From Acytostelium subglobosum LB1 (lineage: Eukaryota; Evosea; Eumycetozoa; Acytosteliales; Acytosteliaceae): a stretch of 64,000 nt of DNA. The notes beneath the pieces were generated by a model that was given only the letters and a program-made list of their open reading frames with translations, did not search any database and was not told the origin of the DNA. The position numbers were made by a program, and so were the translations under genes. The stretch covers positions 869,665-933,664 of the forward strand of contig NW_012236524.1 in the NCBI RefSeq assembly GCF_000787575.1, read 5' to 3'. Numbering within the stretch: position 1 is the stretch's first letter; each line of letters begins with the position of its first letter. Positions 640-42,304 of this stretch are shown here, in pieces.

Positions 640-1639
640 CTTTGTTGTTGTTGTTGTTGTTGTTGTCTCTTCTTGTTATAATGTATATATATAAACTGAT
701 TTTGATATTGATATTATATCTTGCTCGCACTATTGATGCGAACCTAGATCAATCAATCAATTAAGTTAATCAACCAATCGTCACTCCTAACTGAACAAAT
801 AAATAAATAAATAAATAAGATATTATTACAAACTTTATCTCTTCTGTATGTCTATGTATGTCTGTCTCTGTATGTGTATGTTTGAATTATATGTATGTCT
901 TAACAATGTTTAACGAATAGAACACAACACAACACACTATTCTGCACAATATCTATTCAACCACAAACCAATCAATGTTGGATGATTCAACACAACACAC
1001 CACACACAAACAAACAAACACAGATACATCTTACAACTACATCATCATCGCATCCCAGTAATGAAGTGGGTTGCACCCGCCTTCTGGAATGACCCTATCT
1101 GATGGGGCACTAATGAGAAATTCCATAATTAATTGAATGATGGGGTGGGTGCTCAGTAATTGATTGGATGAACATTTATGCGTGTCGTTTCAATTTTCAA
1201 CCGTTGATCAAACACACTCACTCAATCAGAAATCGTAACGGACAGGTCATTGCCTTCATCACTCATACCTGAATACTTAAAGAGAGAGTGGTAGTGTTCT
1301 GCAAGTCCAACACACTACAAAGATGTACATACATCTTATAATTTGGTAGGGAGTATAAGGCACAAGGCACAACAAGATGTGATGTGATGATGTTGACCTT
1401 AGTGTAGAACATTGACAAGAGTTCTCCACTTGCCAATCAATTTGTAGGCATTCATTGTTGAACAACACAAGTGTGCATACATGATGTTGATGGCCATGCC
1501 ATATATATATATTCAAAATCTCAAGTGTGGCGCCACATTATCGTTGAGAGAGCTCTCTCTCTTAATTATGAGGGTTGCATTCATGCCTCCTCCTCCCTTT
1601 ATTCAATCAATCAATCATTGCAATCCAACGATATGATTA
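640..1639. other. Intergenic, no gene seen
   Basis: This 1-kb gap lies upstream of the partial gene (-) and beyond the 3' end of the phosphoesterase (-). It holds a GTT triplet run just before the ATG at 639, an AAAT run near 797-818 and (TA)n near 1500. A GTGGCGCCAC palindrome at 1527-1536 has TTCAAA eleven bases before its GGCGCC core. Short open frames here lack coding character. Confidence 0.6.
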
Positions 1640-3497: not shown

Positions 3498-3541
3498 AGC
3501 GCCAACTTTGAACTTGTAAAACATTGGCGCCACTTTTCAAA
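3498..3541 (+). promoter_or_regulatory. E2F/CHR-like composite upstream of ASF1
   Basis: AGCGCC followed by AAC and TTTGAA occurs first, then TTGGCGCC, ACTT and TTCAAA at 3524-3541. The GCGCC core fits an E2F/DP half-site and TTCAAA is the complement of the CHR hexamer TTTGAA. The element lies about 112 bp before the ATG. Confidence 0.5.
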
Positions 3542-3652: not shown

Positions 3653-4275
3653 ATGAGCCATATTAGATTGACTCAAGTTCTGATTCACAATAATCCAGCG
3701 AGTTTCAACTCACCTCTGATATTCGACATCACATTCGAATGTGTTCAACCTATAGCTGCAGGTATGTCTCGAATGTCTCGAATGGAACATCTACATACAT
3801 ATACATATACTAAACAAATATATATATAGACTTGGAGTGGAAGGTAGTATATGTAGGATCAGCAGATAGTGAAAAGAATGATCAATTATTGGACAGTATA
3901 TGGTTGGGACCAGTGAATGTTGGAAGCAACCAGTTTGTGTTTGAGGTTGAGCCTCCCGATTACTCGCGCATCCCAAAGGATGATCTGCTAGGTGTCACCG
4001 TCGTCTTCCTTTTCTGCGCATACAAGGGCGAGGACTTTATCAGAGTTGGCTACTACGTTAGCAATGAATATAGTGATCCAGAGTTGGCTTCAGTAAGTTC
4101 AATTCATACATTTATTCATTCAATCAATCGATCAATCATGTGTTGTTAACAACCACCTTACCCTTTGTCAACAATGTTACAGAACCCACCAGAGACACCA
4201 GATGTATCGCGAGTTGTTAGGAATATATTAGCAGAGAAGCCAGTTGTTACGGGATTCCCAATCCGATGGGACTAA
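3653..4275 (+). CDS. asf1: Histone H3-H4 chaperone ASF1
   Basis: Three exons, 3653-3761, 3830-4092 and 4183-4275, give about 154 residues. The protein starts MSHIRLTQVLIHNNPASF and carries the family's conserved immunoglobulin-like core, including LEWKVVYVGSA, GPVNVGSNQFVFE and a C-terminal VTGFPIRWD. ASF1 hands H3-H4 dimers to CAF-1 and HIRA in the nucleus during replication and repair. The product stops at the end of the core and lacks the acidic tail found in yeast. Intron 2 carries a CATT/CAAT tetranucleotide tract. The promoter carries E2F/CHR-like sites, which fits S-phase expression. Confidence 0.95.
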
Positions 4276-7737: not shown

Positions 7738-10082
7738 TTAATAATCTTGATCATCATCCTCTTGTCCTTGAGAAGATGGCGATACCAGACTTGCATGTAG
7801 ATTCTCAATAAACTTTGGCATATCCAACTTCTCAATCTCCACAACAGCAGTGTCGAACGACTGGTACTTGAGCAATGAGTTGGTCGAGCTGGCAACCTTT
7901 AAGAAATTTACACCAAACACGCTGTATCAAGAATGAATGAATGATTGAGTTAATGAATGAACGAATGAATGAATGAATGATGTATACATACTTTGCTTGT
8001 TTGGATGAGCTACCATGTGAGCTAGAGATACCAACCAAGAGATAATTGCCAGTGTTCTCATTCAATGCACCAACAAGGAATGGTTTGGTCTTCTTCTTCA
8101 TCGTCGCATAGGCATCCATTATATACAGTCCCAATTTGGTAAGTGCCATTGGGTGCACAAAGAGTCTAGTGTCCGAACCCTCTGGCAACAGAGCGTATCT
8201 GAATGGTCCTGACATCACCACAATCTTCTTCTCAATCACACTGAACAACTGTCTCGTGATCTCCTTCTGTAGGTATATAGCCTGTTTCAGACCCTCGACC
8301 AACAGGTCCAAGTTGCGGCTAAGTATGAATGAGCGAGTGTGTTAGTGAGTGATTATGATCGAGTTCTTCATGTCCAACTTCCAACTTCAAAATTCCAAAC
8401 TTCCAACTTCCAATATCCAACTTCCAATATCCAACTTCCAATCAATTAAACATACTTTGAGAGGGCATCATAGGCATCCCAGAAGTTCTGCTCCCATATC
8501 TCTTTGTCGGTAACGTCGCTTTCGAGATTGTCAGACTCCATTAGGGCCGTCAAGGCGTGAACCATGTCTGAGGCGGACAGCTCAATTGAGCACTCATACT
8601 TGCGAACGAATGATCGGTAGTAGATCTCATTCAGGCCAAACTTTGGCGCGTGTGTCGCCAGCTGTGCCTTGAGATTGGTCTTGTAGTGGCCACTCATTGA
8701 GACGTACTTCTGCTTGACCTGCTCCAGTGGCAGACCCATCAGCGCAAACAGCGTCTCCAGCAGGTACTTTCCCTTGGCGCGCCACAGACGCAGCACACAT
8801 GACACGTACTTGGAGTGGTACATGCTCTCGTAGAGGTTCCAGTGGCGATACAGCATGAAGCGGTAGTCCTCGGCCACGGTGATGTGGTCACCCTGTCCAG
8901 ACTTGTCGTTGGGGTCGTAGGCGTTGAGCACGAGCGCCTTGAGCATCTTGTACTCAATGTCATAGTTGAGCAGGGGCACACGCTCGTGCACCAACTGATC
9001 GGTCACGCCCAGGATGGCGTACCAGAGCAGGCCGTCCAATGAGTCCTTGCTGAGAATTGTGCTGAGTTGATACATCATGGATGCCGAACTCTTGCCATAG
9101 TATGATTGAGTGGTGCGTGACTTTCGCGAATGTGATCTTGCTGCCGCTGCCCTCCTACGCCTCTCCTTCACTGGTGTATTATCCTTCTTCCTCTTGAGTT
9201 TCTTTCTCTTATCACTCCTCTTTCTCTTGCCTTCACTATTCTCATCTATTACTGCCTCACCATCATAATCATCATCCTCTGGTTCTTTGTCCTGTTCTTC
9301 ATCATCGACTTCATCTTCCTCTTCATCATCCTCATCATCCAAGTCTTCCTCTTCATCATCATCTAAGTCCTCTTCATCTTGAAGTTCATCATCATCCTCT
9401 TCATCAATCTGCTCTTCCATGAATGATCCATCGTCAATGATGATCACCTATTGAGTTGAGTTGAGTTAGCACAATCCAATGTTCCGTTCCGTCACCATAT
9501 TATCCATTCATTGATTCATACATGATTCTGATTGTCCACATTACTACGATGATATGGTCTGTGACTGTCAATGATATAGACCAATTGGTTCTCATTCAGA
9601 TTGGTAAGCAATGACTCTATATCAATGTTACCTCCACAGTTTATCATTACAATTGTCTTGAGCTGTTGTTGTCAACCAAGTGAGTGAGTGAATGAATGAG
9701 TGAGTGAGTGAGTGAGTGAGTCCAGTCACACAGCCTGTGTTGACAATACATACCTCTTCATTATCCAACATCAATGTATTGTTTACATCGATAAGATCAT
9801 CCAATCCTGCAACTGGCTTGATATTGAATGATATCAAATCAGACTTGAGTATATCCTATGATTGATTGAATGAATGAGTGAGTGAGTGAGTGAGTAAGTG
9901 ATGATGGATATGGAAGTACCAATCAATCAAACAAACAATGACGACATTACAGTGAATATCTTGCATGCAGCTATAGAGTCACAATCACGTGCTACCAATA
10001 CTAATACTGTCTCTCCCTGTATTGAATCATTCTTGAGTAGTTTATATATCTCATTGAATCTTGTTGGATTGGTGAGTACCAT
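7738..10082 (-). CDS. cdc45: DNA replication initiation factor CDC45
   Basis: Six exons fit by phase: 9951-10082, 9754-9855, 9522-9662, 8456-9447, 7992-8318 and 7738-7921, giving about 625 residues. The N-terminus reads FNEIYKLLKNDSIQGETVLV then VARDCDSIAACKIF, followed by SFNIKPVAGLDDL and YIIDSHRPYH, all typical of CDC45 and its DHH-type fold. A long acidic Asp/Glu stretch at about residues 135-190 and a basic patch follow, matching the variable acidic insert of the family. The C-terminal exons carry FVHPMALTKLGLYIMDA. CDC45 joins MCM2-7 and GINS to form the CMG helicase. Intron 4 holds a CCAACTT minisatellite. The promoter carries a GCGCGCC and TTCGAA pair. Confidence 0.95.
8371..8443 (-). 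repeat. CCAACTT minisatellite inside a CDC45 intron
   Basis: Roughly ten copies of CCAACTT or CCAATAT units lie in tandem in the intron between the fourth and fifth CDC45 exons. The tract fills most of that intron. Confidence 0.75.
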
Positions 10083-10811
10083 CTTATAATATACACTCAA
10101 TCTACTATCTATCTATATCTATCTACTTCTCAAACTATGATATATATATTAACAAAACAATCAATCATTGAATCAACTGTTTGATTATTCGTTCTTGCTA
10201 ATCAAGCGCAAATCGTTTAAGTGTTTCAAATTTTTGAAATGTCGGTTAATTGCGCGCCATTTTTTCGAATCCCATCTCCTTTTATCAGGTGATTCGTATT
10301 TTGTTCATTTCCTTTTGGTATTAATATCGATACATGATCATTGAGATAAACATACAACAATGAGAGAGATAAAACATTATATATGTATATAATAATATAG
10401 AACACAATAGAACATTAAAAGGTTTTCAAATGAACTTCAAAGATTGGAATTATTTTTTGGTTGTATTACCCAATAATGGGTAATGATCAGTTTCGTTGAA
10501 CAAAGATAAAGATCTATCAGATCTGACCCCGAAGATCTTGAATATGTACTTCCTAACACTCTTAAATATCTCTCCCTCTCTTTGAAGGAAACGAGACCTG
10601 ACACGAGACCCCTTCCCCACCACAACACTGTGTGAATGAATGAAAGAGTGCGAATGAACATGACATTGTTGAGTGAGTGTGGTTGAGGCAGCTGAACACC
10701 TGCATGCCTGTGACTGACCTCCTGCTGTCACCTGACATTATGTTCAAATGTTGTTGTTGGAGTCCGAGGTTGAATGTGTCAAAGAGAGATAGATAGATAG
10801 ATTGTAGAGTC
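10083..10811. promoter_or_regulatory. Divergent promoter of CDC45 and the ankyrin gene
   Basis: No gene is seen in this 0.73-kb gap. A TTGCGCGCCA core at 10250-10259 and TTCGAA at 10264-10269 lie about 170-190 bp upstream of the CDC45 ATG. An imperfect palindrome TTTCAAATTTTTGAAA sits near 10224-10239. The right part, up to 10811, has no marked motif. Confidence 0.55.
10250..10269 (-). promoter_or_regulatory. E2F/CHR-like composite upstream of CDC45
   Basis: GCGCGCC is followed, after five bases, by TTCGAA, a CHR variant of the form TTYGAA. On the CDC45 strand the core reads GGCGCGC, a close E2F match. It is the same arrangement as in the ASF1, CDK1 and TPP1-like upstream regions. Confidence 0.5.
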
Positions 10812-15807: not shown

Positions 15808-17197
15808 TTATAACTTTGTCTTTTTTTGTTTGTCATACAATACAATCAAGGCATTGCAGTTACGGTCATATTCTGGATCTTTGTCATTGATCTTGGTCCA
15901 TTCATTTCGTTTGATTGAATATCGATAGTTGTTTCCAGTACCTTGGAGATAGAGCAATGTACCTTGCTCAGGTCCAGAGTAAACCAGGTTGTTTTGGTTA
16001 CCTTCGGTCTCCGAATGTTTTGGTGGAGGTACAAGCTCATTCATAGTAGTATGATCCAATGAAGACAACAATGATATACTAAAGAATCGATTGTCCATCA
16101 ATACCATGTATAACATGTCCTTTCCATCGTAGGCCACAGAGACTATCATTTCTGGGAGTGCAGTGATATGGTGGGATGATTCCTTAAGGTTGTATCCAAA
16201 GATTCTGTCAATATTGTTATCCACCAATATAATATAGAATATTATTGTTGAATACTGCGAAGCCTCTGGCGACGGGTTTCTGGAGCACGCCAACTCTTGA
16301 GAACTGTGGTGTTTCAATGTTGAAGGAATCAATTCGATTGAGCCTGATTGTGCCATGCTCAAATGAATATGTACTTGTGCCACCGAGTAGATAGATCAGT
16401 TTTCCTCCATCATAGAATGTGGCCACCTCTGTGCTGGCCGCCACTCCAACCATCGGGATGTCAAGTTGCCATTTTCGAGTGACCAAGGAGAATCGAGAGT
16501 ATGTTGAAGAGGTGTAGTCACGTGGTCCAAACACATAGACATAGCCACGAGCGTATACCGTTGACATGGCCATATCAACGATCTCTTCAAAAGGTCTTTC
16601 ATCTGGCTTATATGACTGAATGCTGATCCATTGATTGGTCGATGGTGTGAAGAATGAATAGGAACCATTCTCGATACACATGACCTGGCCATCGAGATCA
16701 TGAGTAAAGTGTTCGGTTGGCTCCAGCAGTTTGAACAATGATCTGAGTTGATCCTTGACCGAGTCCATTGTGTCTTGATCAATCACCACTTTGTAGGGAC
16801 GTGTCAACACATGAATTGTTGTATTCATCTGATTGACATGATCTTAATCAATGTCAACAATTCAATATCTGTGACCTCTGTAGATGTTGATGTTGTTGTC
16901 ATGAAGCTGTCTGAATTGATCAGTGACATTCTTGCATGACTCTGTCATCGTATGATGTGCGATAGACAGTTGTTGAAGCATACTCCATAACAACTTCAAT
17001 CTCGCCTTTGATGAATCATCATACTGTTGTTGATTGATCAATGATCTCAAGTGTTGTACATTCTCAACATCATGTCTCTTATGATGTGAATTGACACGTA
17101 CTGAACATATTACTGCGCTACAATCAATACAAATGAATTCTATACTCTTGTTCTTGTGTTCCTCGCATTTACTACTCTCTATCTCTTTATTGTCCAT
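15808..17197 (-). pseudogene. Decayed B-box/Kelch-type paralogue
   Basis: The copy starts at an ATG at 17197 and resembles the intact gene at 36582-38222 over its whole length. Compared with it, the block between QLHD and the TSTSTEV linker (roughly 240-300 bp of coiled coil) is missing. A base is absent near 16835, where the parent reads AAGAATCATG, and another shift falls near 16230. The fragments still encode recognisable Kelch-like stretches such as STYSRFSLVTRKW and YRYSIKRNEWTKI. In the B-box, CSVCV has become CSVRV, losing a zinc ligand. At least three lesions make a working protein unlikely. It lies tail-to-head behind the intact gene at 17217-18905. Confidence 0.85.
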
Positions 17198-17216
17198 GTT
17201 ATGAATGAATTCCAAC

Positions 17217-18905
17217 TCACACCTCTCTCGAGCGCACTTTGTTCGCAGCATTCAAGTGGGTGTCATGAAGATGGCAAACTCTTTGCCAATGTCGGGAACC
17301 GAGTGGATTTAGAAAATTGATACTGGTCCACTCATTCCGATCGACGCTGAATCGATCATTCCAATTATGGCCTTGGAGATAATATATGTATCTTTCTCCA
17401 TCATTAGTATTGATCCACACCATGTTATTGCTTGATGGTGTCTCATCTTGGCAAAAAGGTGGCTTGGACAGATGAAATTGTAGTATATTTGTTGACAACG
17501 ATTGGCTGATGAAATCTCCATTCTTGAGCACCATGTACAACTTGTCATCGCCATCATAGACAGCAGATACGCATGGCTTGGCAGGAAATCTATACTCTTG
17601 AGCCAACTTGTTGGTTATCAAGTCATATGAGTAGATTATGATTTCTTGATAATTAATGTTATCATCATCGTCATCATCGTCATCATCGCTAGCAAGTTGA
17701 ATGCAATGGAGGACATTGTTTCGAAGTGCCACGAATGCATGTGTGATCCCACCGATCAGGTCACCGATATGAGTGTACCGCTGTGTGTCAATGTTGAAGC
17801 TGTCAATTCGACTCGAGAGAGTGCCATCCGGCTCTGTACCTCCGACCAAATAGATGAGTTGGTCGCCATTATAGCACAATCCTATATTCTCTCTACCTTC
17901 CATATCATCATCCACGCCAACCATTTGGTTCTGATGATGCCATTTACGATCAGCCAGTGAGAAGCGAGAGTATGTTGTGGCGTTCTTGAATCCTCCAAAC
18001 AGATAGATATTACCACGAGCATACACATGTGCAAATCCTCTATTGGAGACGATCACATCTTCATGCTCCTGTTCGAACAATGTCCAGGTATGCGTGGTCG
18101 GTGAGAACAAGGAGTAGGCCTTGAGTTCGATGCACATGATCATGCCATCAAAGTCGTGCGTATACTTTCGATATGGCTCATAAATTCGGAAACAAGAACT
18201 TAGTTGCTCCTTGATTGAGTTCATTATTGTTGAGTTGATGATTACAGTGCACGGACGATGTATTAAATGTTGCACATTGTTCATCCGCTCAACATTGCTC
18301 TGGACCAAGGTTAGCAACGCCATGTCTGTGATTGTGATCTCAGAGCCATTGGATGTTGATGTGGCTGTTGTTGGGAATGTTTGATCCATGAACTGATCGA
18401 GTGAAGTACACGATGTGATTGATTGAGCAAGGGAAAGGGAATCGTGGCCATCATCAGTGTCTGTCACATCTCGATCGAACTTGCATGTTGAAGTATGTTT
18501 GAACAATGTGTTGATGCTCTTGATCTCATTGATTATGTTGTCAATGGTTGATGAAGTCTGTTGCAACCTATCATTGAGTTGTGATGTGATCTTGTGCTCC
18601 TCAATGACAAGCATGTCATGAAGTTGTTTGAATTGATCAATAACATTCTTGGATGTATCTGTCAATGTCTGATGTGTTGTTGATAGTTGTTGTAGCATAC
18701 TCCATAACAACTTCAATCTTGTCATTGATTTATCATCATACTGTTGTTTACTGATCAATGATCTTAAGTGTTCTACATTCTCAATGTCATGTCTCTTATG
18801 TGAGCTAACACAAACAGAACATATCAATGTATTACAATCTAAACATATCAACTCATACTTCTTGTTATAATGTATCTCACATATACTATCTTTATCTTTA
18901 TCCAT
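17217..18905 (-). CDS. B-box zinc finger protein with C-terminal Kelch-like repeats
   Basis: A single exon encodes about 562 residues from the ATG at 18905. Residues 8-42 form a B-box: CEIHYNKKYELICLDC, then CSVCVSSHKRH. A coiled coil follows to about residue 150, with QQTSSTIDNIINEI. From about 230 to the end, Kelch-like blades appear: VYARGNIYLFGGF, YSRFSLADRKWHH, LIYLVGG and RFSVDRNEWTSI. A run of nine Asp sits near residue 430. The layout (B-box, coiled coil, beta-propeller) recalls TRIM proteins without the RING. Dictyostelids have many such genes of unknown role. It overlaps no other gene, and a decayed copy follows it. Confidence 0.85.
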   Translation of the reverse strand: MDKDKDSICEIHYNKKYELICLDCNTLICSVCVSSHKRHDIENVEHLRSLISKQQYDDKSMTRLKLLWSMLQQLSTTHQTLTDTSKNVIDQFKQLHDMLVIEEHKITSQLNDRLQQTSSTIDNIINEIKSINTLFKHTSTCKFDRDVTDTDDGHDSLSLAQSITSCTSLDQFMDQTFPTTATSTSNGSEITITDMALLTLVQSNVERMNNVQHLIHRPCTVIINSTIMNSIKEQLSSCFRIYEPYRKYTHDFDGMIMCIELKAYSLFSPTTHTWTLFEQEHEDVIVSNRGFAHVYARGNIYLFGGFKNATTYSRFSLADRKWHHQNQMVGVDDDMEGRENIGLCYNGDQLIYLVGGTEPDGTLSSRIDSFNIDTQRYTHIGDLIGGITHAFVALRNNVLHCIQLASDDDDDDDDDNINYQEIIIYSYDLITNKLAQEYRFPAKPCVSAVYDGDDKLYMVLKNGDFISQSLSTNILQFHLSKPPFCQDETPSSNNMVWINTNDGERYIYYLQGHNWNDRFSVDRNEWTSINFLNPLGSRHWQRVCHLHDTHLNAANKVRSREV

Positions 18906-18999: not shown

Positions 19000-21923
19000 C
19001 TACTCCTTGGTAGGATCGAGATCTTTGTTCTGTGCCTCTTTGATTTGAACACATTGCCTCATCATGTTGCTTAGACACTCGGTTGACTTGGCGCTCTGAA
19101 TGAAAGGATGTGAAAGAAGGTCGCCAACATTGGGTCTTTGTTCGGGGTCCTTGACCAGACACTTGGCAATAAAGTCGTTGAATGATGGACTCCAGTCCTT
19201 TGGATTGGAGAGCTTGGGTGGTGGCATGTTGGGCACCTCAGTCAGCTGAGCCATAGACTTGAGACCGCGCGAGGGCGGACGACCCTCGGCCAACTCAATC
19301 AACGTGATGCCAAACGACCACACGTCGGCCTTGGAGTTGAACGGCGCCTTCAGAATGAGCTCGGGCGCCATGTACAGAGGACTGCCAATGAGAATGTTTG
19401 ACTGGCCGTAGGGCGTCTGAAGCTGCTGCGAGACACCAAAGTCGGCGATCTTGACCTGTCCATCTTCGTTGAGCAGGATGTTCGCAGCTTTGACGTCGAG
19501 ATGCACGATGCCCTTGGAGTGTAGGTACCCCAGGCCGACCAGCACCTCGGCTGCCACCGATCCAATCTGCTCCTCGTCCAGTGTGTCACAGCACGTCTTC
19601 ATCATGTCCTTGACCGAGCCGACGGCGCAGTAGTCCATCAGGATCCACAGCTCGGCCAACTTGGCGATCGATCCGTAGTAGGACAGCACGCTCTGGCAGC
19701 GGCACTTCTTGAGCAGGTCGATCTCCTTCTCGATGTCGGCGATGCGGCTGGGCGTGATGGAGAGCACCTTGACGGCTAGAGTCGTGCCAGACTCGCGGTG
19801 CAGCGCGCGGAACACAGCGCCGTAGCCGCCTTGGCCCAGCTTCTCCTTGAACTCGAACGAGTCCTCCAGGTTGGAGCCGGACCATTTATACTCGAAATCT
19901 ACATGTGTTTTATGTACAAGGTTGAAGGGCAGACCTACGTTGGATGGCGTGCGACGCGACTTTTGCTTGCGCGTCTTGGTGCCGTCGCCACCGGTGGCGT
20001 CGGGCAACAGCAGCGTTTGACTGCTGGCGCTGCCGGGCGTGGGCATCATCGACGGGTCGATCACCGCTAGTCGCTCCACCTTTATCAGCAGGTCCTTCTG
20101 TGCGGGATTATCGTTCTTCTCACGCTCCTTGTCCTTGCCGTTGGCGCCGCCAGCTGCAGCGTTGGCCGGATCGATCTCCGGATACGTTGGGAGCATCGAC
20201 AAGGGCGAGTAAATGACCGATATCTCGATGCCTCCATCTGCATCATCCACACATAGTCCTCTGTTTATCGTCTTCTTCTTAAATATCAATGTATCCTACA
20301 TATGATTGATTGATTGAGTGAGTGGAATGATTCCTTCCTTGTTTGGTCCCGCCGCCAACATACTTTTATCTTGATACCATAGTTTGATATCAACTTCTGA
20401 TCGTAGAGCCTGAGGTAGTAGCCTCGAGAGACCTTGCCTGTGATTCGATTGGTGGGCAGACAGAGCTTCTTGAGCAACTTGTACGAAGAGACGTGGTTGT
20501 CACCATCACGCTCACCGCCGACGATCATCAGGTTGTGATCCTCCAATGTGTGGAAGTACTCTGGTCTGTATCGCCTGGGGTTGGCCGATGCTGTGCCCGA
20601 CATTGATGCGCGAGGCGATCGCTCGTCACCGCTGCGACTCAGACTGGAGTTGGGCGTGAGCTCCTTGTCCTCAAAGTCCAGCCACTGCTGTATCTTGAAC
20701 AAAGCTTCGGCTACCTTGACGTCCTTGTCCAGTACCAACGAGCCCTTGCCTGGGTATGCCGGCGACACCAGCTCGTACTCGGGCTCGCGTCGCAGATAGA
20801 GGATGTCCTCGGGCTGCAGGTTCAGGTTCTTGAGACTGACGTTGGGCACGGGCCGGTCGTCATTGTTGAGGAATAGCTTGTTCTTGGGCGACTGATAGAT
20901 GGGCGCCAGCTGCGAGTTGAGCAAGGACACGACATCCTGTGTCGACTTGCCCGCGCTGAACTTGCGCACACGGTACAGCTGGCCGGTGTACTCCATCGGC
21001 ACCCACACCTTGATCAGTATCTCGTCGCCAACAGCGGGGCCCACGCGGGCCACCTCGGATGCGACGCTCGGATGCGACGACACCGCCGATGTCTGTGTGA
21101 AGCTGAGCAGCTGACTAAAGATCGACTCCCTGCCCTTGACCGTGCCCTTGTCCTTGCTGGTGTTGTGCTGCACGGGCATCGACTGGCGATTGATCGACTG
21201 CAATAACTGTGTGGATGTTGGTATGCCAGAGGCCGAGGACGACAACGAGCTTGGCGAGTTTGATGGCGAAGGTATGAGTGCACCATTGTCGGGAGGTGTA
21301 CTGCCTGCCTTATTAACAAAGCTTGGTGGAGTCGAGAGTGGTGCAGATGTGTTCGATATCGATCGTGAGTGGGTATTTACATTGTTGTTGTTGTTGTGGT
21401 TGTTGTTGCCACTGCCACTGCTGTGGCTGTGACTATGACTGTGACTGTGTTGGTGATGATGATTGTTGCTGTTGTTGCCATTGTTGTTTAGATGAGTTAG
21501 ATCAAAGGTGGGAGGGGGCATTGGCTGCAGGTCTAGGATGCTTGATTGATCGATGGTGCTGTATTTCCTCGCGGGCGATAATAGTACTGGACTTGTTGCT
21601 GTTATTGTACCATAGATTGAATCTCGCTTTGTAGACGTTGTTTTCTTCCAAGTTGATGTCAACGATGATGCAGTTGTAGTTGATGATGGATTGTTTGAAG
21701 CAATCTGATCTTGACTCGATCTGAGTGATAAAGATGATGATGGTGATGATGATATCGTAGGTGATGCTGCTGCTGTTGCTGTCTTTGTAACACTACTATC
21801 TACAATAGTGATTGCAATCGATGTTGTTGTCGTCGTTGAGTTGTTATTATTAATGTTACTGCTGTTGGAGTCTATCGTTGCTCCAATTGAATCAGAGTTG
21901 TTTGGTGATGGCGGTACATCCAT
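19000..21923 (-). CDS. STE20-type protein kinase with long N-terminal region
   Basis: Two exons, 20364-21923 and 19000-20295, give about 951 residues. Residues 1-280 are low-complexity Ser/Thr/Asn/His. A folded module follows at about 295-520 and begins GDEILIKVWVPMEYTGQLY, which looks ubiquitin- or RA-like (inference). The kinase domain spans about 667-917: GQGGYGAVF loop, LAVKVL lysine, HLDVKAANILL catalytic loop, DFGVS, GSPLYMAPELI, ADVWSFG and the C-terminal RPNVGDLLSHPF. The sequence around APE and KAANILL places it in the STE20 group. The catalytic loop has Leu where most kinases have Arg (HRD), so it is a non-RD kinase. It is probably a cytosolic Ser/Thr kinase. I cannot assign a named paralogue. 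Confidence 0.88.
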
Positions 21924-22863
21924 TCTTTAGTATACAAGTATGATTGATTGATTGTGTTTGTCGTTATAATAAATAGTATAATTGATTGAATGAATGAATG
22001 AATGAATGGGTACTGCTACAACATTACAACCCAACTACAGCGTCGTGTTCAGAGGGTCTACGAATAGCCTTGGCAAGTCGGGTATGTATGAGCTTGTGTA
22101 TTATAAATATATAAATAATAAATAAATAAGTTATTATCTGTATAAAGAGTTAAAGTATGAGACAAGCAAGGGTATTGGCGGGACACAATAAGTTTATGAT
22201 TGATTGGTGTGCCTCAATTAATAAGACTCTAAGTGTGTCTGTGTCTTGTCTTAGTGTGGTGTGAGTTGGAAGTGAGTGAGAGAGATGTGGGCTTGGTTTT
22301 GATTCTTCTTTGGCTTCACGTTTGTGGTTTTGTTGAGGTAGAGTTGGAGTGACGCCAGGTCCACAATTGGGTCATGCCTGGCAATGCGAATCCACACTCA
22401 CCCCACATTTGAAAATTCATAACCAAGGGTGATCACTTGCAACCCGACCGATGTTGATCGATCCCAACACCCACACTTTATGATAGTTGTTGTGATAATA
22501 AACATGAATGTTTATTTGATTGAGATGGATGGATGGATTCATGGATGGATGAATTGATGGTATCCAAGAACATCAACAACAACAACTACAACAATGAATA
22601 CAGATCTAAATATCAAGATAGATGAATAAGATAATAATAAAACAGATAAGATATTTAGACTGAAATATTTGTTGACAATTTGTGACACAATGTCATTGAT
22701 GAATGAGCCGAGGAATCGTCCAAGTGGTGTATGATTTGGCGCCACTTCAACTTCAAAGTTTGTCGAAAGTTTGAAAGAGTGAGAGACTTGGGAAAACGTG
22801 AACAAACACACTCTCAAGAGATAGTGAATTAGAGATAAGAGATAGAGATAGAGTGATAGGAAC
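21924..22863. promoter_or_regulatory. Divergent promoter of the kinase and TPP1-like gene
   Basis: This 0.94-kb gap has no gene. It contains AAGGGTGATCAC at 22425-22436, shared with the ASF1 promoter, and TTTGGCGCCAC at 22735-22745 followed by TTCAAA at 22752-22757, about 107-129 bp before the ATG at 22864. Confidence 0.55.
22735..22757 (+). promoter_or_regulatory. E2F/CHR-like composite upstream of the TPP1-like gene
   Basis: TTTGGCGCCA matches the E2F consensus. Eight bases after GGCGCC comes TTCAAA, the CHR complement. The element lies just upstream of the probable transcription start. Confidence 0.5.
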
Positions 22864-25792
22864 ATGGACAAGCCGAAACATGAAATAGATACTTCTGTTG
22901 ATGATGATGTTATATTGGATGTTGATGACAACGATGATGATGATATAGATCCAAGTCAACCATCACAATCAAAGTCAAAGTCTGGGTCACAGTCACAGAC
23001 ACCAGCCGACGAGATCAATGCAGAGAATATCGATCGTCAAGTGGAGGTGCCCGACTTCTTTGATCGAGACTTTGACAGCCAACCTCTAATCTACACTCAA
23101 TATACACAGACTCAAACACAACAACAAACAACAACAACATCTCAACTACAACAACACAACAAGATCATAGAGTTGAGTCAAACAACAAAGACAACAGCAT
23201 CAACAACAGCAACAATCAGTACTGACAAAGCGAACGTCAACATCAACAAAGACATTGCCGACAATGTCACTCCAGTGAGTTCAAATAATGTGGACACAGC
23301 AACAGCAGCAGCATCGGCATCAGCATCATCAATCAGATCAAGTGGCTCGCGTAGAACCGACTCACTCAATGTATCGTACAGTGGCAGGCTATTGGAGAAG
23401 CCTGATCAAGTCATGATGAGAGGCAGCAAGGATGTGGATAGCAATCTAGCATCTGATCGAAGAGATAGCAGTGATGATGATGATGAGGACAAAGACGAGG
23501 ACGAGGATGAGGACGAAGAAGAGAGCAACATCAATGACATCAACCTCGTGGCAATAGAAGGATCAATCACATCTACACACTTTGATCAACAAATCACTGA
23601 TCTACAACCATGGATATGTGACTCAATCGTTCGCGAGCAGACAACTCCCGATGCCCTGGTCCAGATCGTATCGTTTGTAAGTGTGATTGATCCACACTCA
23701 ATCATTCATCAATCAATCAATCAATCAATCATAATCTAACATTACTCGCGCGATGTTAGGTCAAGCCAATGTCATGTGACAAGTTCAGTGGCGTACACTT
23801 CAAGGTGTCTGATGGCAGACATTATATTACATGCGTTATGAATGAGGCTTGTGTCCATGAACATCAGGTACAATTGCAGAGCTATCAACCTGATAGCATG
23901 CTTGGAGTGATCGTCTCATTGAAGAAGTATCTGATCTTCCCCAACGATGTACACTCTGACTTCTGTATATACGTCGATGACATGGACTTCCAGACACGCT
24001 CGCGAACCATCATCAACTTTGCCAATATCCTGCCCATCCAGTTTGAGACCAAAGTGGAAGAGTTGATCAAGAGGTAATGATTGATTGATCGTCATACAAT
24101 CAAAACCTTCTCGAGAGTGTACTAACGCATGCATACCATACAGGTGTTCATCAAACAACTACTTTGTGTTATCCTTCCCAACTGGATATTGTCTGGAGCA
24201 TTATGGCAAGAACGTCTGCAATCCAGACAACGTCCAAGTGTGCGCCGAGGAGTGTGAAATACCAGACATGGCCTTGGAGATGTTGATAACCGATGGTATG
24301 TTGGATGTGCGCGATTGGAAGTCTGATGAGGCGACTAACCCGATCAATCAATCAACCAATCAAAGACCCATGGATACCTGACAAGGACATTGCATTCCCA
24401 TTTGTTGATGAGGTGATTGAGGAAAGAGACATCATCAACAATGACATTGACATTATCATCGACAACGACAATTACAACAATGGCGATGTGCCATCAATTG
24501 ACAAATCATTGGATAATGTTCCAGTGGATAGAGACAGCACGGGCAGTGAGAAGGATGACACAAACAGCATGTTGGATTTCAACATAGATGATAATGACGA
24601 TGGTGGTAATGAGCTACCTCATGCTAAAGTGGAGGTACACGACAAGGACCATAGCAATGTACCAGTGGACAAGGATAGCATTGGCATTGAATCACCTGGT
24701 CCATTGGCTGGCCGCATTGACCGCGACTTTGATATGGACGTAGGTGGCGGTGGCGGTGGTCATGATTACTTTGACGAAGGCAATGCTGGAAACTCTGGCG
24801 ATGCAGCTTCATCTGGTCAAGAGGAGTTTGATGATATACAGGTGGTTGTGGATCGTGACCCTGATGAATTCCATACAGAGGTTGTACAGGAGATGGAAGA
24901 GGAGCTAGAGGCAGACACTAGCTTCGTCGCAGACAAACAATCAACTTTGAACCTTTACAACAATGTACAGTCAACATTCGATGTGGCCAAGGACCAGGAC
25001 GAGAGTGATGAGGAGGAAGAGACGCAGAAGGCAAAGATAGTAAAGACGCAGAAGAAGAAGAAGATTATCAACAACAACAACAACACACCAAAGAAGACAA
25101 AGCAACAACAACAAGAAGAGGAGAAGCCTAAAGAAAAAGAATCACCATTAATGAAGACACGCAAACAGATGCAACAGGAAGAACAAGAGATGAAGGAGAG
25201 GTTGGAGAGGACAGATAGCGAGGATAGGCAAGAGAGAAGACAAAATCGACAACAAATACGTCAAAGAAAACAAGAGAAACGACAAAGAGAACAACAAGAA
25301 CTACAACTACAACAACAACAACAACAACAACAACAGCAACAACAACAAAAACATAGTCAAGACTCGGACAGGGATATGGACAGTGGCAATTGGACAAAGA
25401 AGAAGTCAATTGACACTCAATGGGATGATGACATGTTCCTAAACGTAGATGTTGTGGTCAAGAACGACATCAAGTATCGACCTGCCAAGAAGACACCATC
25501 CACAGTCACCGCATCAGCAGCAGCAGCAGTCCCACTACACAAAGCCAACAAACAAGCGACACATACTACAAACAAAAAAGACAACAAAGATAACAACGAC
25601 AACAACAACAACAAGAGAAAGAAAACTGATGATATACATATAGATGTATCGTTCGAGGAAAGTGATGAGGACAGAGAGAAGACGAAGAAGCAGAAGGCGG
25701 AAGTCGCAGTTAAAACAGAGAAACGATTCTCTTCCAACATACTGGAGAGTCTAAGATATGTATACGCCGAAAACGATTCATTACTCATTTAA
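22864..25792 (+). CDS. Large acidic/polyQ protein with a possible TPP1-like OB fold
   Basis: Four exons, 22864-23676, 23760-24073, 24144-24295 and 24366-25792, give about 901 residues. The first 240 residues are disordered and acidic or Gln/Thr-rich. Residues about 245-376 read LQPWICDSIVREQ, then HFKVSDGRHYITCVM and LIFPNDVHSDFCIYVDD. This order and wording resemble the OB fold of the shelterin protein TPP1/ACD, which has LRPWIRELI and LVSDGTHSVRCLV. The remaining part is acidic, then basic, with a polyQ run near 25308-25349. A TPP1-type protein would bridge telomeric DNA-binding proteins and recruit telomerase. Other OB proteins are an alternative. The gene is clear; the function is a hypothesis. 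Confidence 0.8.
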
Positions 25793-25875
25793 TAATAATA
25801 ATAAAGATGTAGTGTCCTCGGCGCGGTGATCTATAGATATATTCTGGTGTATATACAGGTGCTCGCGAGATTGTC

Positions 25876-36336: not shown

Positions 36337-36581
36337 AGTGTGTAGAGATAAGTAGATAATATTAATGAAATAATATTATTGGTCCATCAATACTCAGTAC
36401 TTTTGTAACAAGTTATGTTTCTCGTCGAAGGATCTCGAATCCAGAAATGGAAATAATGTTGTTGTTGACAACAATGTCCAGATCTTTTTTCTTTGACCCC
36501 TCAATCTACACTCACTGCCCTAGTTTGTAACGACATCTAGTGATAGTGGTTTGTGAATGTATTGCAACAACAAAAATAAAA

Positions 36582-37122
36582 ATGGAGAGTAACATAATTG
36601 ATAGAGACACAACAGATACAGATATAGATGATAGTAGTATTTGCTCAAGACATGGCAAGAAGAAATATAAGTTTATTTGTATAGAATGTAATAGTTTGTT
36701 ATGTTCAATGTGTGTCAGTTCACATAAGAGACATGATGTTGAGAATGTACAACACTTGAGATCATTGATCAATGAAGGACAGTATGACGATACATCAAAG
36801 TTGAGATTGAAGTTATTGTGGAGTATGCTTCAACGACTGTCAGTGGCACATCATACGATGACAGAGTCATGCAAGAATGTCAGTGATCAATTCAAACAAC
36901 TTCATGACATGCTTGTGATTGAGGAACACAGGATAACATCACCACTCAATGACAAGATTCAACAAACATCATCAACCATTCATGACATCATCAATGAGAT
37001 CAAGAACATCAACAGTCTGTTCAGCCAATCGACAACCAAGACCGATGACTTGGAGATAAACGAGATCATTCAATCAATCAAATCATCAACATCGCCCAAA
37101 GAGTTCATCGACAAGACATTCC

Positions 37123-37153
<31 letters not shown>

Positions 37154-38222
37154 TACAGAGGTCACAGATATTGAATTGTTGACAATGATTAAGAATCATG
37201 TCAATCAGATGAACACAACAATTCATGTGTTGACACGTCCCTACAAAGTGGTGATTGATCAAGACATGATAGACTCGGTCAAAGATGAAATAAGATCATT
37301 GACCAAACTGATGGAGCCAATCGAACACTTTACTCATGATCTCGATGGCCAGATCATGTGTATCGAGAATGAGAATGTGTCGTTGTTCTCGCCAGCGACC
37401 AATGGATGGACAGATGTGGATGGTGATTCATTTGAAAAAGCGAACTATTTCTGCTCGTCAGTATATGCTCGTGGTCATGTCTATGTGTTTGGACCACGTG
37501 ATGACTGCCCATCAACATACTCTCGCTTCTCACTCGTTACTCGAAAATGGCAATATGATATCCCAATGGCTGGAGTTAGAGGCGGAAGACTCTGTTCAGT
37601 CTGCTTTGATGGAGACAAGTATATATACTTGGTCGGTGGCACCACTATTGATGTTTGGCCACAAGTCAATTTCAATCGAGTTGATTGCTTCAATATTGAA
37701 ACTCAAGAGTTCTCAATGTATGGCGAACTATCACAATGCGTCTCTGCAGGCTATCTGTTCATCATTGACAATACACTCTATTATATCGACAGTGATAGCA
37801 TTACAATATCAATCATAGAGTTCAACTTGGCAAGCAAAAAGTCGACCTTTATCAAAGGTATCATTCCTGAAACAGCCCTTTCAGTAGTCTTTGATGGCAA
37901 TGACAGAATATACATCTTTCTCATGCATCGATTCATCAGCATGTCATTGTTGGCAGTGGACAAAGCAAAGACAATCAGGGAGCTTACACCTCCGCCAGCC
38001 AATCCATTGTACGGGGAGGAAAAATGGGCACGCAACACCCTGGTGTATTACACACCTGAGCAAGGAACTATACTCAATCTTCAAGGTACTGGAAATAACT
38101 ATCGATACTCAATCAAACTGGACGAATGGACCAAGATCAATGACAATGATCCAATCGAAGATAGAGGTTATAGTGCATTGAGTCTATTGTATGACAATCC
38201 TGTCAAGCGTACTCCAAAGTAG
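36582..38222 (+). CDS. B-box zinc finger protein with Kelch-like C-terminal repeats
   Basis: A single exon encodes about 546 residues from the ATG at 36582 (MESNIIDRD). The longer open frame begins with a GTG at 36540 and is not needed. The B-box reads CSRHGKKKYKFICIEC then CSMCVSSHKRH. A coiled coil with QQTSSTIHDIINEI follows, then Kelch-like blades with VYARGHVYVFGP, YSRFSLVTRKW, YIYLVGG and YRYSIKLDEWTKI. It is the closest intact relative of the decayed copy at 15808-17197, sharing long nucleotide stretches (for example around QHLRSLIN). It starts a tandem group with 38224-38709 and 38806-40455. Confidence 0.85.
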
Positions 38223-38223
38223 A

Positions 38224-38709
38224 CCCATAAATACATCATTATTCCAACACTCTTCATCGTTGTCATCGATGATCATTCATGACAACGATCTCTATTGCGT
38301 CGATGGATATGATTCCATAAGTAGAATCATCTTGACCTACGACCTGGCGACCAAAGAAAAGACTCGAATCCAACTGCCTGGCATGCTCATGTCAGCAGCC
38401 TTTGACGGTAAAGACATTTTGTACATGATGTTGGAAGACAATCGTTTCATCAGCATGTCACTATCGACCAGACTACAAAATAAATTGGACTCCCCAATCC
38501 CAGGAGGTAATGAATCACAACAAAACAATCTTGTATTCTATCCACCAGAGAAAGGAACACTCCTATTGCTTCAAGGCAAAGGCGCCAACTTCCGATACTC
38601 GACAAGACGCAATGAATGGACTTTAATCGATGATGATGATCCACTTGATGAGAGGCGCTGGAACACTGTATGTGTATTGTATGATAAGCCCCGCTTGGTC
38701 AATGATTGA
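38224..38709 (+). pseudogene. Truncated B-box/Kelch copy (C-terminal part only)
   Basis: This piece encodes the last ~150 residues of a B-box/Kelch protein, with LTYDLATKEK, NNLVFYPPEKGTLLLLQGKG and FRYSTRRNEWT. It lacks the B-box, coiled coil and early blades. The open frame begins inside the previous gene and no promoter-like gap precedes it. A short repeat ACCCATAAATACA occurs at both its ends (38223-38235 and about 38716-38728). It looks like a leftover of unequal exchange between tandem copies, not a gene. Confidence 0.75.
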
Positions 38710-38805
38710 TTGGTCCAACCCATAAATACAATGAATGTGGTTCATTCCAACCCACACTAATCATTCATGCAATCGTTCTTCGAGTTGAGAAAGATAGTGA
38801 TAGAG

Positions 38806-40455: not shown

Positions 40456-41074
40456 ATATATGAATGGAATGAGTTTGCAAAGTAGTCAAGGTGATTGAAT
40501 AAGTTAACCGCCATAATTTTAAAATTCAAATTTGAAATGAATGGCGCCAAATTGAGGTGTTTTGTAATGTGTGGTTCACATGTTTGGATCACTTGAACAC
40601 ATTCAAACAAAACACACTTCCTTCAACAATAAAGAGGTAGATAGCCCAATATCAATCACTTGTTCTCATCGGTTGATATGACTGTTATAAATTAAAAAGT
40701 AACAAACACATAACAACAACAACAGCAATTACAACAGCAATTACAACAGCTATAACAAAGCAACAAACAAGGCACAGCACAATCAAAAAAGAGAAAGAAG
40801 CAGTATAAATTCAATTTCTTCGATCAATCAACATCTTGTTTACACATCACCATCACAACAACAACTCAACTATCAACTGTACAATATATACACATATATA
40901 TATCATTCATAGTTGTTCAACAGAACAGTAAGTAGTCAGCTGACACTACTCACTCACTCGCTCAATCAATCACTCGTTCGCTCACTCACTAACTCGACTC
41001 GATCAATCAATCAATCAATCACATGATCATTCGATATACATATATAGACATAGACAAACAGACTTAAAGAAACA
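40456..41074. promoter_or_regulatory. CDK1 promoter region
   Basis: This 0.6-kb gap has no gene. A 12-bp palindrome TTCAAATTTGAA (40525-40536) is followed after six bases by GGCGCCAAA (40543-40551), about 525 bp upstream of the CDK1 ATG. The region 40860-41010 is pyrimidine-rich with tetranucleotide repeats and is probably leader. Confidence 0.5.
40525..40551 (-). promoter_or_regulatory. E2F/CHR-like composite upstream of CDK1
   Basis: TTTGAA at 40531-40536 and GGCGCC at 40543-40548 are six bases apart. On the minus strand this is GGCGCC then TTCAAA, the order seen in the ASF1 and TPP1-like upstream regions. It is farther from its ATG than the others. Confidence 0.45.
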
Positions 41075-42206
41075 ATGGATCATTCTGATGGAGGACTTTC
41101 TCGATTCCAGAAGCTAGAGAAGCTTGGTGAGGGTACATATGGAAAGGTGTACAAGGCAAAGGAGAAGTCAACTGGTAGGATTGTGGCTCTCAAGAAGATT
41201 CGTCTGGAGGACGACGGTGTACCAAGCACTGCCCTGCGTGAGATCTCTCTTCTCAAGGAGTTGCCACACAGCAACATCGTCACGTATGTATCATGTCGTC
41301 TTGAACGTCATCATGTCTTGGCGCTAACATCATCCACCTCATCACTAATACAATGACAACAACAATAGTTTGATCGATGTTCTTCATTGTACACATAGAC
41401 TATACCTTGTCTTTGAGTTCCTCGATCAGGACTTGAAGAAGTACATGGACTCAGTGTCTGTGATCAATCCACAGTTGATCAAAGTATGTTGATCATTCAT
41501 TCATTCATTCATTCCCCATTCCATAACTAACCAACCAATCAATGATATACAGTCATACATGTACCAGTTGCTCAGAGGATTGGCTCACTCTCATAGCCAG
41601 AGAATATTGCATCGTGATCTCAAGCCACAAAACTTGTTGATTGATCGTTTGGGAGCGATCAAGATTGCCGACTTTGGTCTGGCTCGTGCCATCAGCATTC
41701 CAGTTCGTGTGTACACTCACGAGATCGTCACTCTTTGGTATCGCGCACCAGAGGTGCTCCTGGGCTCCAAGACCTACTCGGTCCCAGTGGACATGTGGTC
41801 GGTCGGTTGCATCTTTGGAGAGATGTTGAACAAGAAGCCACTGTTTTCCGGTGACTGTGAGATCGATCAGATCTACCGTATCTTCCGTGTACTTGGCACT
41901 CCCAACGAGTCCATTTGGCCTGGTGTCACCGAGTTGCCAGACTTCCACGTGAACACCTTCCCCATCTGGACTGGACAGCCACTCGCCAAGTTTGTCCCCA
42001 ATGCAGAGCCACATGCTATTGACCTCTTGAACGTATGTCTTACTCGCGCGTGAAACTTTGGCCACCATCCTCCTCCCAATCACACCTCACTAACCAATGA
42101 CCAACAACAACAGAAAATGCTCCAGTACGAGCCATCAAGAAGAATCTCTGCAAAGGCAGCTCTCAACCATCCATACTTCAGCGATCTTGATGCAAGCGCA
42201 TTCTAA
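41075..42206 (+). CDS. cdk1: Cyclin-dependent kinase 1
   Basis: Four exons, 41075-41283, 41369-41483, 41553-42032 and 42114-42206, give 298 residues. The Gly loop [11 protein letters not shown] holds the inhibitory Thr14 and Tyr15, and the cyclin-binding helix is PSTALRE, as in Dictyostelium Cdk1. [15 protein letters not shown], the T-loop [15 protein letters not shown] and [19 protein letters not shown] identify a CDK1/2-type kinase. It pairs with cyclins to drive mitosis, probably S phase too. The C-terminus [12 protein letters not shown] resembles the Dictyostelium protein. Introns carry ATTC tracts and ACTAAC-like branch sites. Confidence 0.97.
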
Positions 42207-42304
42207 AGGGTAGAATGTGAAGCGTACACTCGGCCTCAATCTCCCAACAGGCCAACCAAACATTGTTTTGATCAACCAACCAACCAACACCAATCACAAC
42301 CAAT

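What the first reader, a model, noticed from the sequence alone, without database searches (positions are those of the whole stretch)
3498..3541. Shared GCGCC plus TTCRAA composite in four S-phase-related promoters
ASF1 (3526-3541), CDC45 (10254-10269), CDK1 (40531-40548) and the TPP1-like gene (22738-22757) each have a GCGCC core with TTCAAA or TTCGAA 4, 5, 6 and 8 bp away. Three of the four lie within about 190 bp of the ATG. The layout resembles the animal E2F/CDE plus CHR element read by DREAM/MuvB. GGCGCC is otherwise rare outside exons in this window; the one other non-coding hit I saw (1529-1534) has its TTCAAA 11 bp away. It could be an ancient cell-cycle element in dictyostelids.
Basis: partly seen in the sequence, partly recalled or inferred. 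Interest (0 to 1): 0.82.

Follow-up and report, generated by a model that had tools for sequence, protein, structure and literature searches.

The report
Paired cell-cycle switch sites in amoeba
Upstream of three core cell-division genes and one possible telomere gene in what looks like a social amoeba sit paired DNA motifs resembling the two docking sites that animals use to switch cell-cycle genes on and off, paired far more often than chance predicts, though binding and conservation remain untested.

Summary
In detail: the four GCGCC plus TTCRAA composites lie as stated, with gaps 4, 5, 6 and 8 bp, and the ASF1 promoter holds a fifth (3498-3512). The pairing is not chance: 5 of 8 intergenic GCGCC cores have TTTGAA/TTCGAA within 8 bp, against means of 0.03-0.75 in simulations and flank shuffles, none reaching five; within gene spans it is 1 of 39. 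With motifs taken from papers (E2F TTSSCGC, CHR TTYRAA), 15.6 kb of intergenic DNA holds 4 E2F sites; all 4 have a CHR hexamer 1-9 bp away, before ASF1 (two), the TPP1-like gene and CDK1. Independently, D. discoideum asf1, cdc45 and cdk1 are RblA-repressed, and dictyostelids have E2F, DP and lin54. Best reading: docking sites for E2F/DP plus LIN54 in a DREAM-like complex. They miss the fixed 4-nt spacing and order of the mammalian CDE/CHR site and mostly join an E2F-consensus core to a canonical CHR. CDC45's core misses the strict E2F consensus. Conservation and binding could not be tested; four promoters in one species is a small sample.

The parts
3498..3512 (+). ASF1 element a: AGCGCC-AAC-TTTGAA (reverse strand reads TTGGCGC, an E2F consensus)
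3526..3541 (+). ASF1 element b: GGCGCC-ACTT-TTCAAA (TTGGCGC at 3524)
3653..4149 (+). ASF1 histone chaperone gene: first exon from ATG 3653 and the exon with the Pfam match (3' end not mapped)
   Evidence: PF04729 E=5.3e-41 for 3814-4146; ATG
10254..10269 (+). CDC45 element: GCGCC-ATTTT-TTCGAA, between divergent CDC45 and an ankyrin gene; core does not meet strict TTSSCGC
10225..10238 (+). Two further TTYRAA hexamers (10225, 10233) beside the CDC45 core
7738..10082 (-). CDC45 gene (approximate span)
   Evidence: PF02724 E=3.1e-85 for 8446-9420; ATG 10082
22738..22757 (+). TPP1-like element: GGCGCC-ACTTCAAC-TTCAAA (preceded by TTT, so TTTGGCGC); a second TTTGAA at 22770
22864..25792 (+). TPP1-like gene (approximate span); weak match to shelterin TPP1/ACD in 23760-24074
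   Evidence: PF10341 E=0.0024, 18.1 bits, cut-off 26.5
40531..40548 (+). CDK1 element: TTTGAA-ATGAAT-GGCGCC (reverse strand TTTGGCGC); further TTYRAA at 40518 and 40525
41075..42250 (+). CDK1 gene with a PSTALRE motif (approximate span)
   Evidence: PDB hits CDK3, CDK2, CDK1, best E=8.4e-73, 60 of 536 shown; Pfam kinase; PSTALRE
1512..1534 (+). Doubtful sixth pair: TTCAAA-11-GGCGCC, about 870 bp upstream of an unnamed minus-strand gene

Best explanation
Each composite is a two-part docking site upstream of a cell-cycle gene: E2F/DP binds the GCGCC core and LIN54, the CXC-domain subunit of a MuvB-like core, binds the adjacent TTYRAA. RblA joins the two halves into a DREAM-like repressor that holds the genes off for most of the cycle; when RblA is inactivated in late G2 the genes switch on together. 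Shown here: the motif pairing and its statistics. Published: RblA repression of the D. discoideum orthologues of three of the four genes. Inferred: binding by E2F/DP and LIN54 and repression through these sites. Because Dictyostelium has no G1 and most RblA-repressed genes peak in one late-G2 wave, an E2F site fused to a canonical CHR on S-phase genes and on CDK1 alike would fit a one-wave cycle.
For: Pairing at gap <=8: 5 of 8 intergenic cores, 0 of 400 simulations at each of three orders and 0 of 2000 local shuffles in each setting reach it. At gap <=15: 6 of 8; 0 of 2000 local shuffles in each setting and 1 of 15531 circular shifts reach it; one search gives only means there (0.06-0.43). 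Fisher against gene spans P=2.1e-4 at <=8. Hexamer test: TTTGAA/TTCAAA ranks first beside the cores at gaps <=8, <=12, <=15 (P=1.8e-4, 3.8e-5, 4.1e-6); corrected for 2080 hexamers (my arithmetic) only the last is clearly below 0.05 (about 0.008). Literature-defined scan: 4 TTSSCGC sites, 4 of 4 with TTYRAA 1-9 bp away, 0 of 400 at each of three orders. asf1, cdc45, cdk1, and DP, lin9, lin54, rblA, are listed as at least twofold up in the rblA disruptant (PMC3386910 section 7); most RblA-repressed genes peak in late G2, no G1 (section 8). One CxC and nine E2F/DP factors listed for Dictyostelia, lin54 named (PMC6873476 passages). LIN52 with a pocket-binding domain reported in Metazoa and Amoebozoa (PMC7225089 passages). 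The 3 window genes that I found in that RblA table are all among the 4 composite genes of 27 hand-made gene models, hypergeometric P=0.0014.
Against: Four promoters, one 64 kb window, one species; gene spans drawn by hand. Gap and order toward the gene vary, unlike the mammalian rule. CDC45's core misses the strict E2F consensus. The CDK1 element is 527 bp from the ATG. One pair (1512-1534, gap 11) lies far upstream of an unidentified gene; the cores at 25820 and 52921 are unpaired. TTYRAA alone is not special to these promoters: the Far-17a-like gene has 5 in 700 bp upstream and no GCGCC. Three of the four regions are divergent, so the element could serve the other gene. No binding, expression or conservation data for this species.
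Confidence: 0.66

Rival explanations
1. Plain E2F/DP sites: only the GCGCC core works, read by E2F/DP with RblA, and the TTTGAA hexamers are incidental in AT-rich promoters.
For: E2F consensus in 4 of 5 elements; RblA represses the orthologues; variable gap and order are unlike a rigid tandem site; TTYRAA also occurs upstream of genes without a core.
Against: TTTGAA is the top hexamer beside the cores; dinucleotide shuffles of the local flanks give means 0.26-0.75 at gap <=8 against 5 observed; other G/C 5-mers in the same DNA pair in 6 of 76 cases.
Confidence: 0.16
2. The TTTGAA half binds another factor, for example a STAT or other factor with a TTGA core, cooperating with E2F in developmental rather than cell-cycle control.
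For: Dictyostelium STAT binding to TTGA-containing sites (recalled, no call); e2f, tfdp2 and lin54 appear among prespore-specific factors (PMC6873476 Table 2 passage), so a developmental role is possible.
Against: TTYRAA is the measured LIN54 consensus (PMC4974476 passages), and the CDC45 element has TTCGAA, which fits TTYRAA but holds no TTGA.
Confidence: 0.07
3. Chance plus selection: a motif-hunting reader found a coincidence in one window.
For: Small numbers; both ASF1 elements lie within 45 bp and are not independent; the pattern was chosen after seeing the sequence; after correction for 2080 hexamers the gap <=8 hexamer result alone is not significant (my arithmetic).
Confidence: 0.11

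Closest known systems
Mammalian CDE/CHR tandem element (G2/M genes, bound by DREAM)
   Same: GC-rich E2F-type half beside a canonical TTTGAA/TTCGAA CHR; the human Cdc2 (CDK1) promoter is a published example and CDK1 carries one here.
   Different: Mammalian CDE lies 4 nt upstream of the CHR and is given as GGGCGG/TGGCGG with low E2F affinity (PMC5716687 passages). Here gaps are 3-8, order is mixed and 4 of 5 cores fit TTSSCGC. Usage varies: PMC4974476 calls TTGGCGC in the p107 promoter a CDE.
Mammalian E2F/CLE element (S-phase genes such as CDC45, RAD51, MYBL2)
   Same: E2F site plus CHR-like hexamer on S-phase genes, CDC45 included.
   Different: A CLE by definition differs from TTTGAA; in that screen of human S-phase DREAM targets one gene, KIAA1731/CEP295, had a canonical CHR 4 bp downstream of its E2F site. 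Here the partner is canonical.
C. elegans DRM hybrid CDE/CHR motif (PMC5683655)
   Same: E2F/DP and LIN-54 half-sites in one motif at DREAM targets; a DRM peak in the cdk-1 promoter.
   Different: Defined by ChIP-seq and MEME; no binding data here. Its spacing was not in the passages I saw.
[quoted passage not shown]
   Same: A non-animal protist with an E2F plus CHR-like hybrid motif.
   Different: Ciliate, from ChIP peaks; its authors say CHR elements had not yet been studied there. Here an amoebozoan (inferred), from sequence only.

Membership tests
E2F plus CHR (DREAM-type) promoter element, broad sense | E2F consensus TTSSCGC in the core | tested here: met
   4 of 5 elements (ASF1 a and b, TPP1-like, CDK1); CDC45 fails
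E2F plus CHR (DREAM-type) promoter element, broad sense | Adjacent LIN54/CHR hexamer TTYRAA more often than chance | tested here: met
   5 of 8 intergenic cores at gap <=8, no simulation or flank shuffle reaches it; 4 of 4 literature-defined E2F sites
E2F plus CHR (DREAM-type) promoter element, broad sense | Lies upstream of cell-cycle genes under Rb-family repression | tested here: inconclusive
   asf1, cdc45, cdk1 RblA-repressed in D. discoideum; by orthology only, not shown in this species; TPP1-like unknown
E2F plus CHR (DREAM-type) promoter element, broad sense | Bound by E2F/DP and LIN54 together | not testable with these tools
   no ChIP or binding data
E2F plus CHR (DREAM-type) promoter element, broad sense | Conserved upstream of orthologues in related species | not testable with these tools
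   no genome held; ASF1 in genome contigs and CDC45 in viral contigs found no relative
Mammalian CDE/CHR tandem element | Spacer of 4 nt with the CHR downstream | tested here: not met
   gaps 3, 4, 5, 8, 6; order toward the gene core-CHR in 3 of 5, CHR-core in 2 of 5; rule
Mammalian CDE/CHR tandem element | GC half is a CDE (GGGCGG/TGGCGG) rather than an E2F consensus site | tested here: inconclusive
   4 of 5 cores fit TTSSCGC, so not met by PMC5716687; PMC4974476 calls TTGGCGC a CDE
Mammalian E2F/CLE element | Partner hexamer differs from canonical TTTGAA and is weak alone | tested here: not met
   partners are TTTGAA/TTCAAA in 4 of 5 and TTCGAA in 1 of 5 elements, listed as CHR motifs; affinity not tested

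The most novel reading that the evidence does not exclude
Dictyostelids use one merged element, an E2F consensus site fused to a canonical CHR with loose spacing, for S-phase and mitotic genes alike, because their G1-less cycle has a single late-G2 transcription wave; the animal split into E2F/CLE (S) and CDE/CHR (G2/M) would then be a later specialisation of an ancestral E2F-CHR site older than the amoebozoan-animal split.
Probability: 0.35. Interest if true: 0.72.

Novelty: new variant of a known kind. Interest (0 to 1): 0.55.

Why it matters
RblA is reported to repress virtually all S-phase and most mitotic genes in Dictyostelium (PMC3386910), but I saw no paper that names the promoter element through which it does so. 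The nearest was a remark in that paper that one Tdd-5 transposon holds a consensus E2F element; none that I saw mentions a CHR there. Searches: in an open-access library; some searches listed only the best 15-20 of their hits, and subscription papers (the rnrB promoter work among them) are mostly missing. A candidate with both halves makes direct tests possible: which half carries repression, whether LIN54 is needed, and whether the animal division between S-phase and G2/M elements is ancestral or derived. It would place E2F-plus-CHR grammar in Amoebozoa, beside animals and a ciliate.

Tried and rejected
Rejected: the rigid mammalian CDE/CHR rule (gap and order vary); E2F/CLE (partner is canonical); pure chance as the main reading. 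Led nowhere: whole-genome scans and conservation tests (no genome held); ASF1 in genome contigs and CDC45 in viral contigs (35 and 24 pattern matches, none confirmed as a relative); TTTGGCGC plus Dictyostelium in papers gave one hit, a Caco-2 mycotoxin paper. Pfam gave no family for 22864-23739 and 24290-25789, so the TPP1 name rests on one sub-threshold match. The neighbouring kinase at 19000-20196 (minus) is MST/STE20-like.

Gene spans used for 'intergenic' were drawn by hand from ORFs, a codon score and Pfam; not every model has a Pfam match. Two were corrected during the work (an unnamed minus-strand gene, start moved to 2890; talin start moved to 52304), so intergenic totals differ: 14756, 15116, 15612. 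The set of 8 cores stayed the same. The 8-core binomial tests treat cores as independent; the two ASF1 cores are not, hence the one-per-region figure.

Full report
What was checked. The ASF1 promoter holds two: AGCGCC-AAC-TTTGAA (3498-3512) and GGCGCC-ACTT-TTCAAA (3526-3541). Gene identities: ASF1 (PF04729, E=5.3e-41), CDC45 (PF02724, E=3.1e-85), CDK1 (best solved-structure hits CDK3, CDK2 and CDK1, 60 of 536 shown; PSTALRE motif in the ORF listed). The TPP1-like gene rests on one match below Pfam's cut-off (E=0.0024), so its name is tentative. The window looks dictyostelid: FNIP repeats and a talin with a villin headpiece, and intergenic DNA of 36% G+C; that identification is inference.

Is it more than chance? 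Hand-drawn gene spans leave about 15 kb of intergenic DNA with 8 GCGCC/GGCGC cores. Five have TTTGAA, TTCAAA or TTCGAA within 8 bp and six within 15 bp. Markov simulations of order 1, 2 and 3 give on average 0.03, 0.10 and 0.27 paired cores at gap <=8, and 0 of 400 reach five in each; at gap <=15 that call gives only means, 0.06, 0.20 and 0.43. Dinucleotide shuffles of the local flanks (50, 100 or 200 bp, two CHR definitions, two gap limits; 12 settings) give means of 0.26-1.33, and 0 of 2000 reach the observed count in each setting. Sliding the cores along the intergenic DNA gives five at gap <=8 in 3 of 15611 shifts and six at gap <=15 in 11 of 15611 when near-zero shifts are kept, and 0 and 1 of 15531 when shifts of 40 bases or less are left out. 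Within gene spans 1 of 39 cores is paired (Fisher P=2.1e-4 at gap <=8). Other all-G/C 5-mers in the same intergenic DNA are paired in 6 of 76 cases; one of the six overlaps the CDC45 element, as its sequence shows.

Two tests bear on the worry that the motif was picked after the fact. First, among hexamers seen beside the cores TTTGAA/TTCAAA ranks first at three gap limits (P=1.8e-4, 3.8e-5, 4.1e-6); corrected for 2080 hexamers these become about 0.4, 0.08 and 0.008, so only the widest limit stands alone. Second, with both motifs taken from papers, E2F as TTSSCGC (PMC5716687) and CHR as TTYRAA (PMC4974476), 15612 bases of intergenic DNA hold 4 E2F sites. All 4 have a CHR hexamer 1-9 bp away and lie before ASF1 (two), the TPP1-like gene and CDK1; 0 of 400 simulations at each of three orders reach this. 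CDC45's core, within GCGCGCC, fails this stricter E2F definition, which counts against a uniform element. Each of the four promoters has at least two TTYRAA hexamers within 40 bp of its core (for ASF1, of the pair of cores), a density found at 4.6% of intergenic positions. TTYRAA by itself is not special: for example 5 lie within 700 bp upstream of the Far-17a-like gene, which has no core.

Gene association. In D. discoideum, asf1, cdc45 and cdk1 are all in the published table of RblA-repressed genes, together with rblA, DP, lin9 and lin54 (PMC3386910, section 7). By 27 hand-made gene models these three all fall among the four genes nearest to a composite (hypergeometric P=0.0014). That table lists major groups only and its supplement was not readable here. 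Three of the four regions are divergent: the ASF1 elements lie about 610 bp from the start of an unnamed gene (2890), the CDC45 element about 540 bp from an ankyrin gene, the TPP1-like element about 815 bp from an MST-like kinase; each is nearer the gene named here. The sixth pair (1512-1534, gap 11) lies before an unidentified gene, and two cores (25820, 52921) are unpaired.

Mechanism. The proteins exist in dictyostelids: E2F/DP factors and one CxC factor, with lin54 named (PMC6873476), and LIN52 with a pocket-binding domain, which PMC7225089 found only in Metazoa and Amoebozoa, though PMC8500230 names Arabidopsis LIN52A and B. I read each composite as a docking site for E2F/DP on the core and LIN54 on TTYRAA, bridged by RblA. 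Shown: the pairing and its statistics. Published for another species: RblA dependence of three orthologues. Inferred: occupancy, bridging, repression through these sites.

How it differs from the animal elements. Mammalian CDE/CHR has a 4-nt spacer, CHR downstream, and a GC half described as a weak E2F site; E2F/CLE has an E2F site and a non-canonical partner, and in that screen one human S-phase gene combined an E2F site with canonical TTTGAA at 4 bp. Usage is not uniform: PMC4974476 calls TTGGCGC in p107 a CDE. Here gaps are 3, 4, 5, 6 and 8, the order toward the gene is core-CHR in three and CHR-core in two, and 4 of 5 elements join an E2F consensus to a canonical CHR. So they fit neither mammalian class strictly, though they probably work like them. 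A hybrid CDE/CHR motif is known in C. elegans (PMC5683655) and a CHR-like hybrid is proposed in Tetrahymena (PMC8216455), so the kind is known; I saw no report of it in Amoebozoa in the searches made (several listings were capped).

The boldest reading. Dictyostelium has no G1, and most RblA-repressed genes peak in late G2 (PMC3386910, section 8). A merged E2F plus canonical-CHR element on S-phase genes and on CDK1 would suit one wave, and the animal split into two element classes would be derived. Four promoters cannot establish this.

What was seen of each paper. PMC3386910: sections 7, 8 and 10 and passages. Passages only: PMC5716687, PMC4974476, PMC5683655, PMC6873476, PMC7225089, PMC4862756, PMC8500230, PMC8216455, PMC6927116, PMC2837350. 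All others: search listings.

Limits. One species, one window, no conservation test, hand-made gene spans.

Noticed in passing
window 10206-10212: GCGCAAA, a further E2F-like half site, about 42 bp from the CDC45 element on the side of the CDC45 start.
   Followed up: no
window 40928-41061: Possible 5' UTR intron of CDK1 (GTAAGT ... CAG just before the ATG), read by eye; it could bring the CDK1 element closer to the transcription start than 527 bp suggests.
   Followed up: no
window 15808-18905 (minus) and 36531-40455 (plus): At least four B-box/kelch gene copies or fragments in two clusters; the translations of 16217-16843 (minus) and 36531-38222 (plus) share near-identical stretches by eye, suggesting recent duplication or conversion.
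   Followed up: no
window 22864-25792: A possible shelterin TPP1/ACD-like gene with acidic and poly-Q stretches; sub-threshold Pfam match in 23760-24074. A fold comparison would be worthwhile.
   Followed up: partly
window 1512-1534: TTCAAA-11-GGCGCC about 870 bp upstream of an unnamed minus-strand gene (ORF 301-675); Pfam gave no family.
   Followed up: partly
window 52921-52925: Unpaired GCGCC core about 617 bp upstream of the talin start at 52304 (start read by eye).
   Followed up: partly
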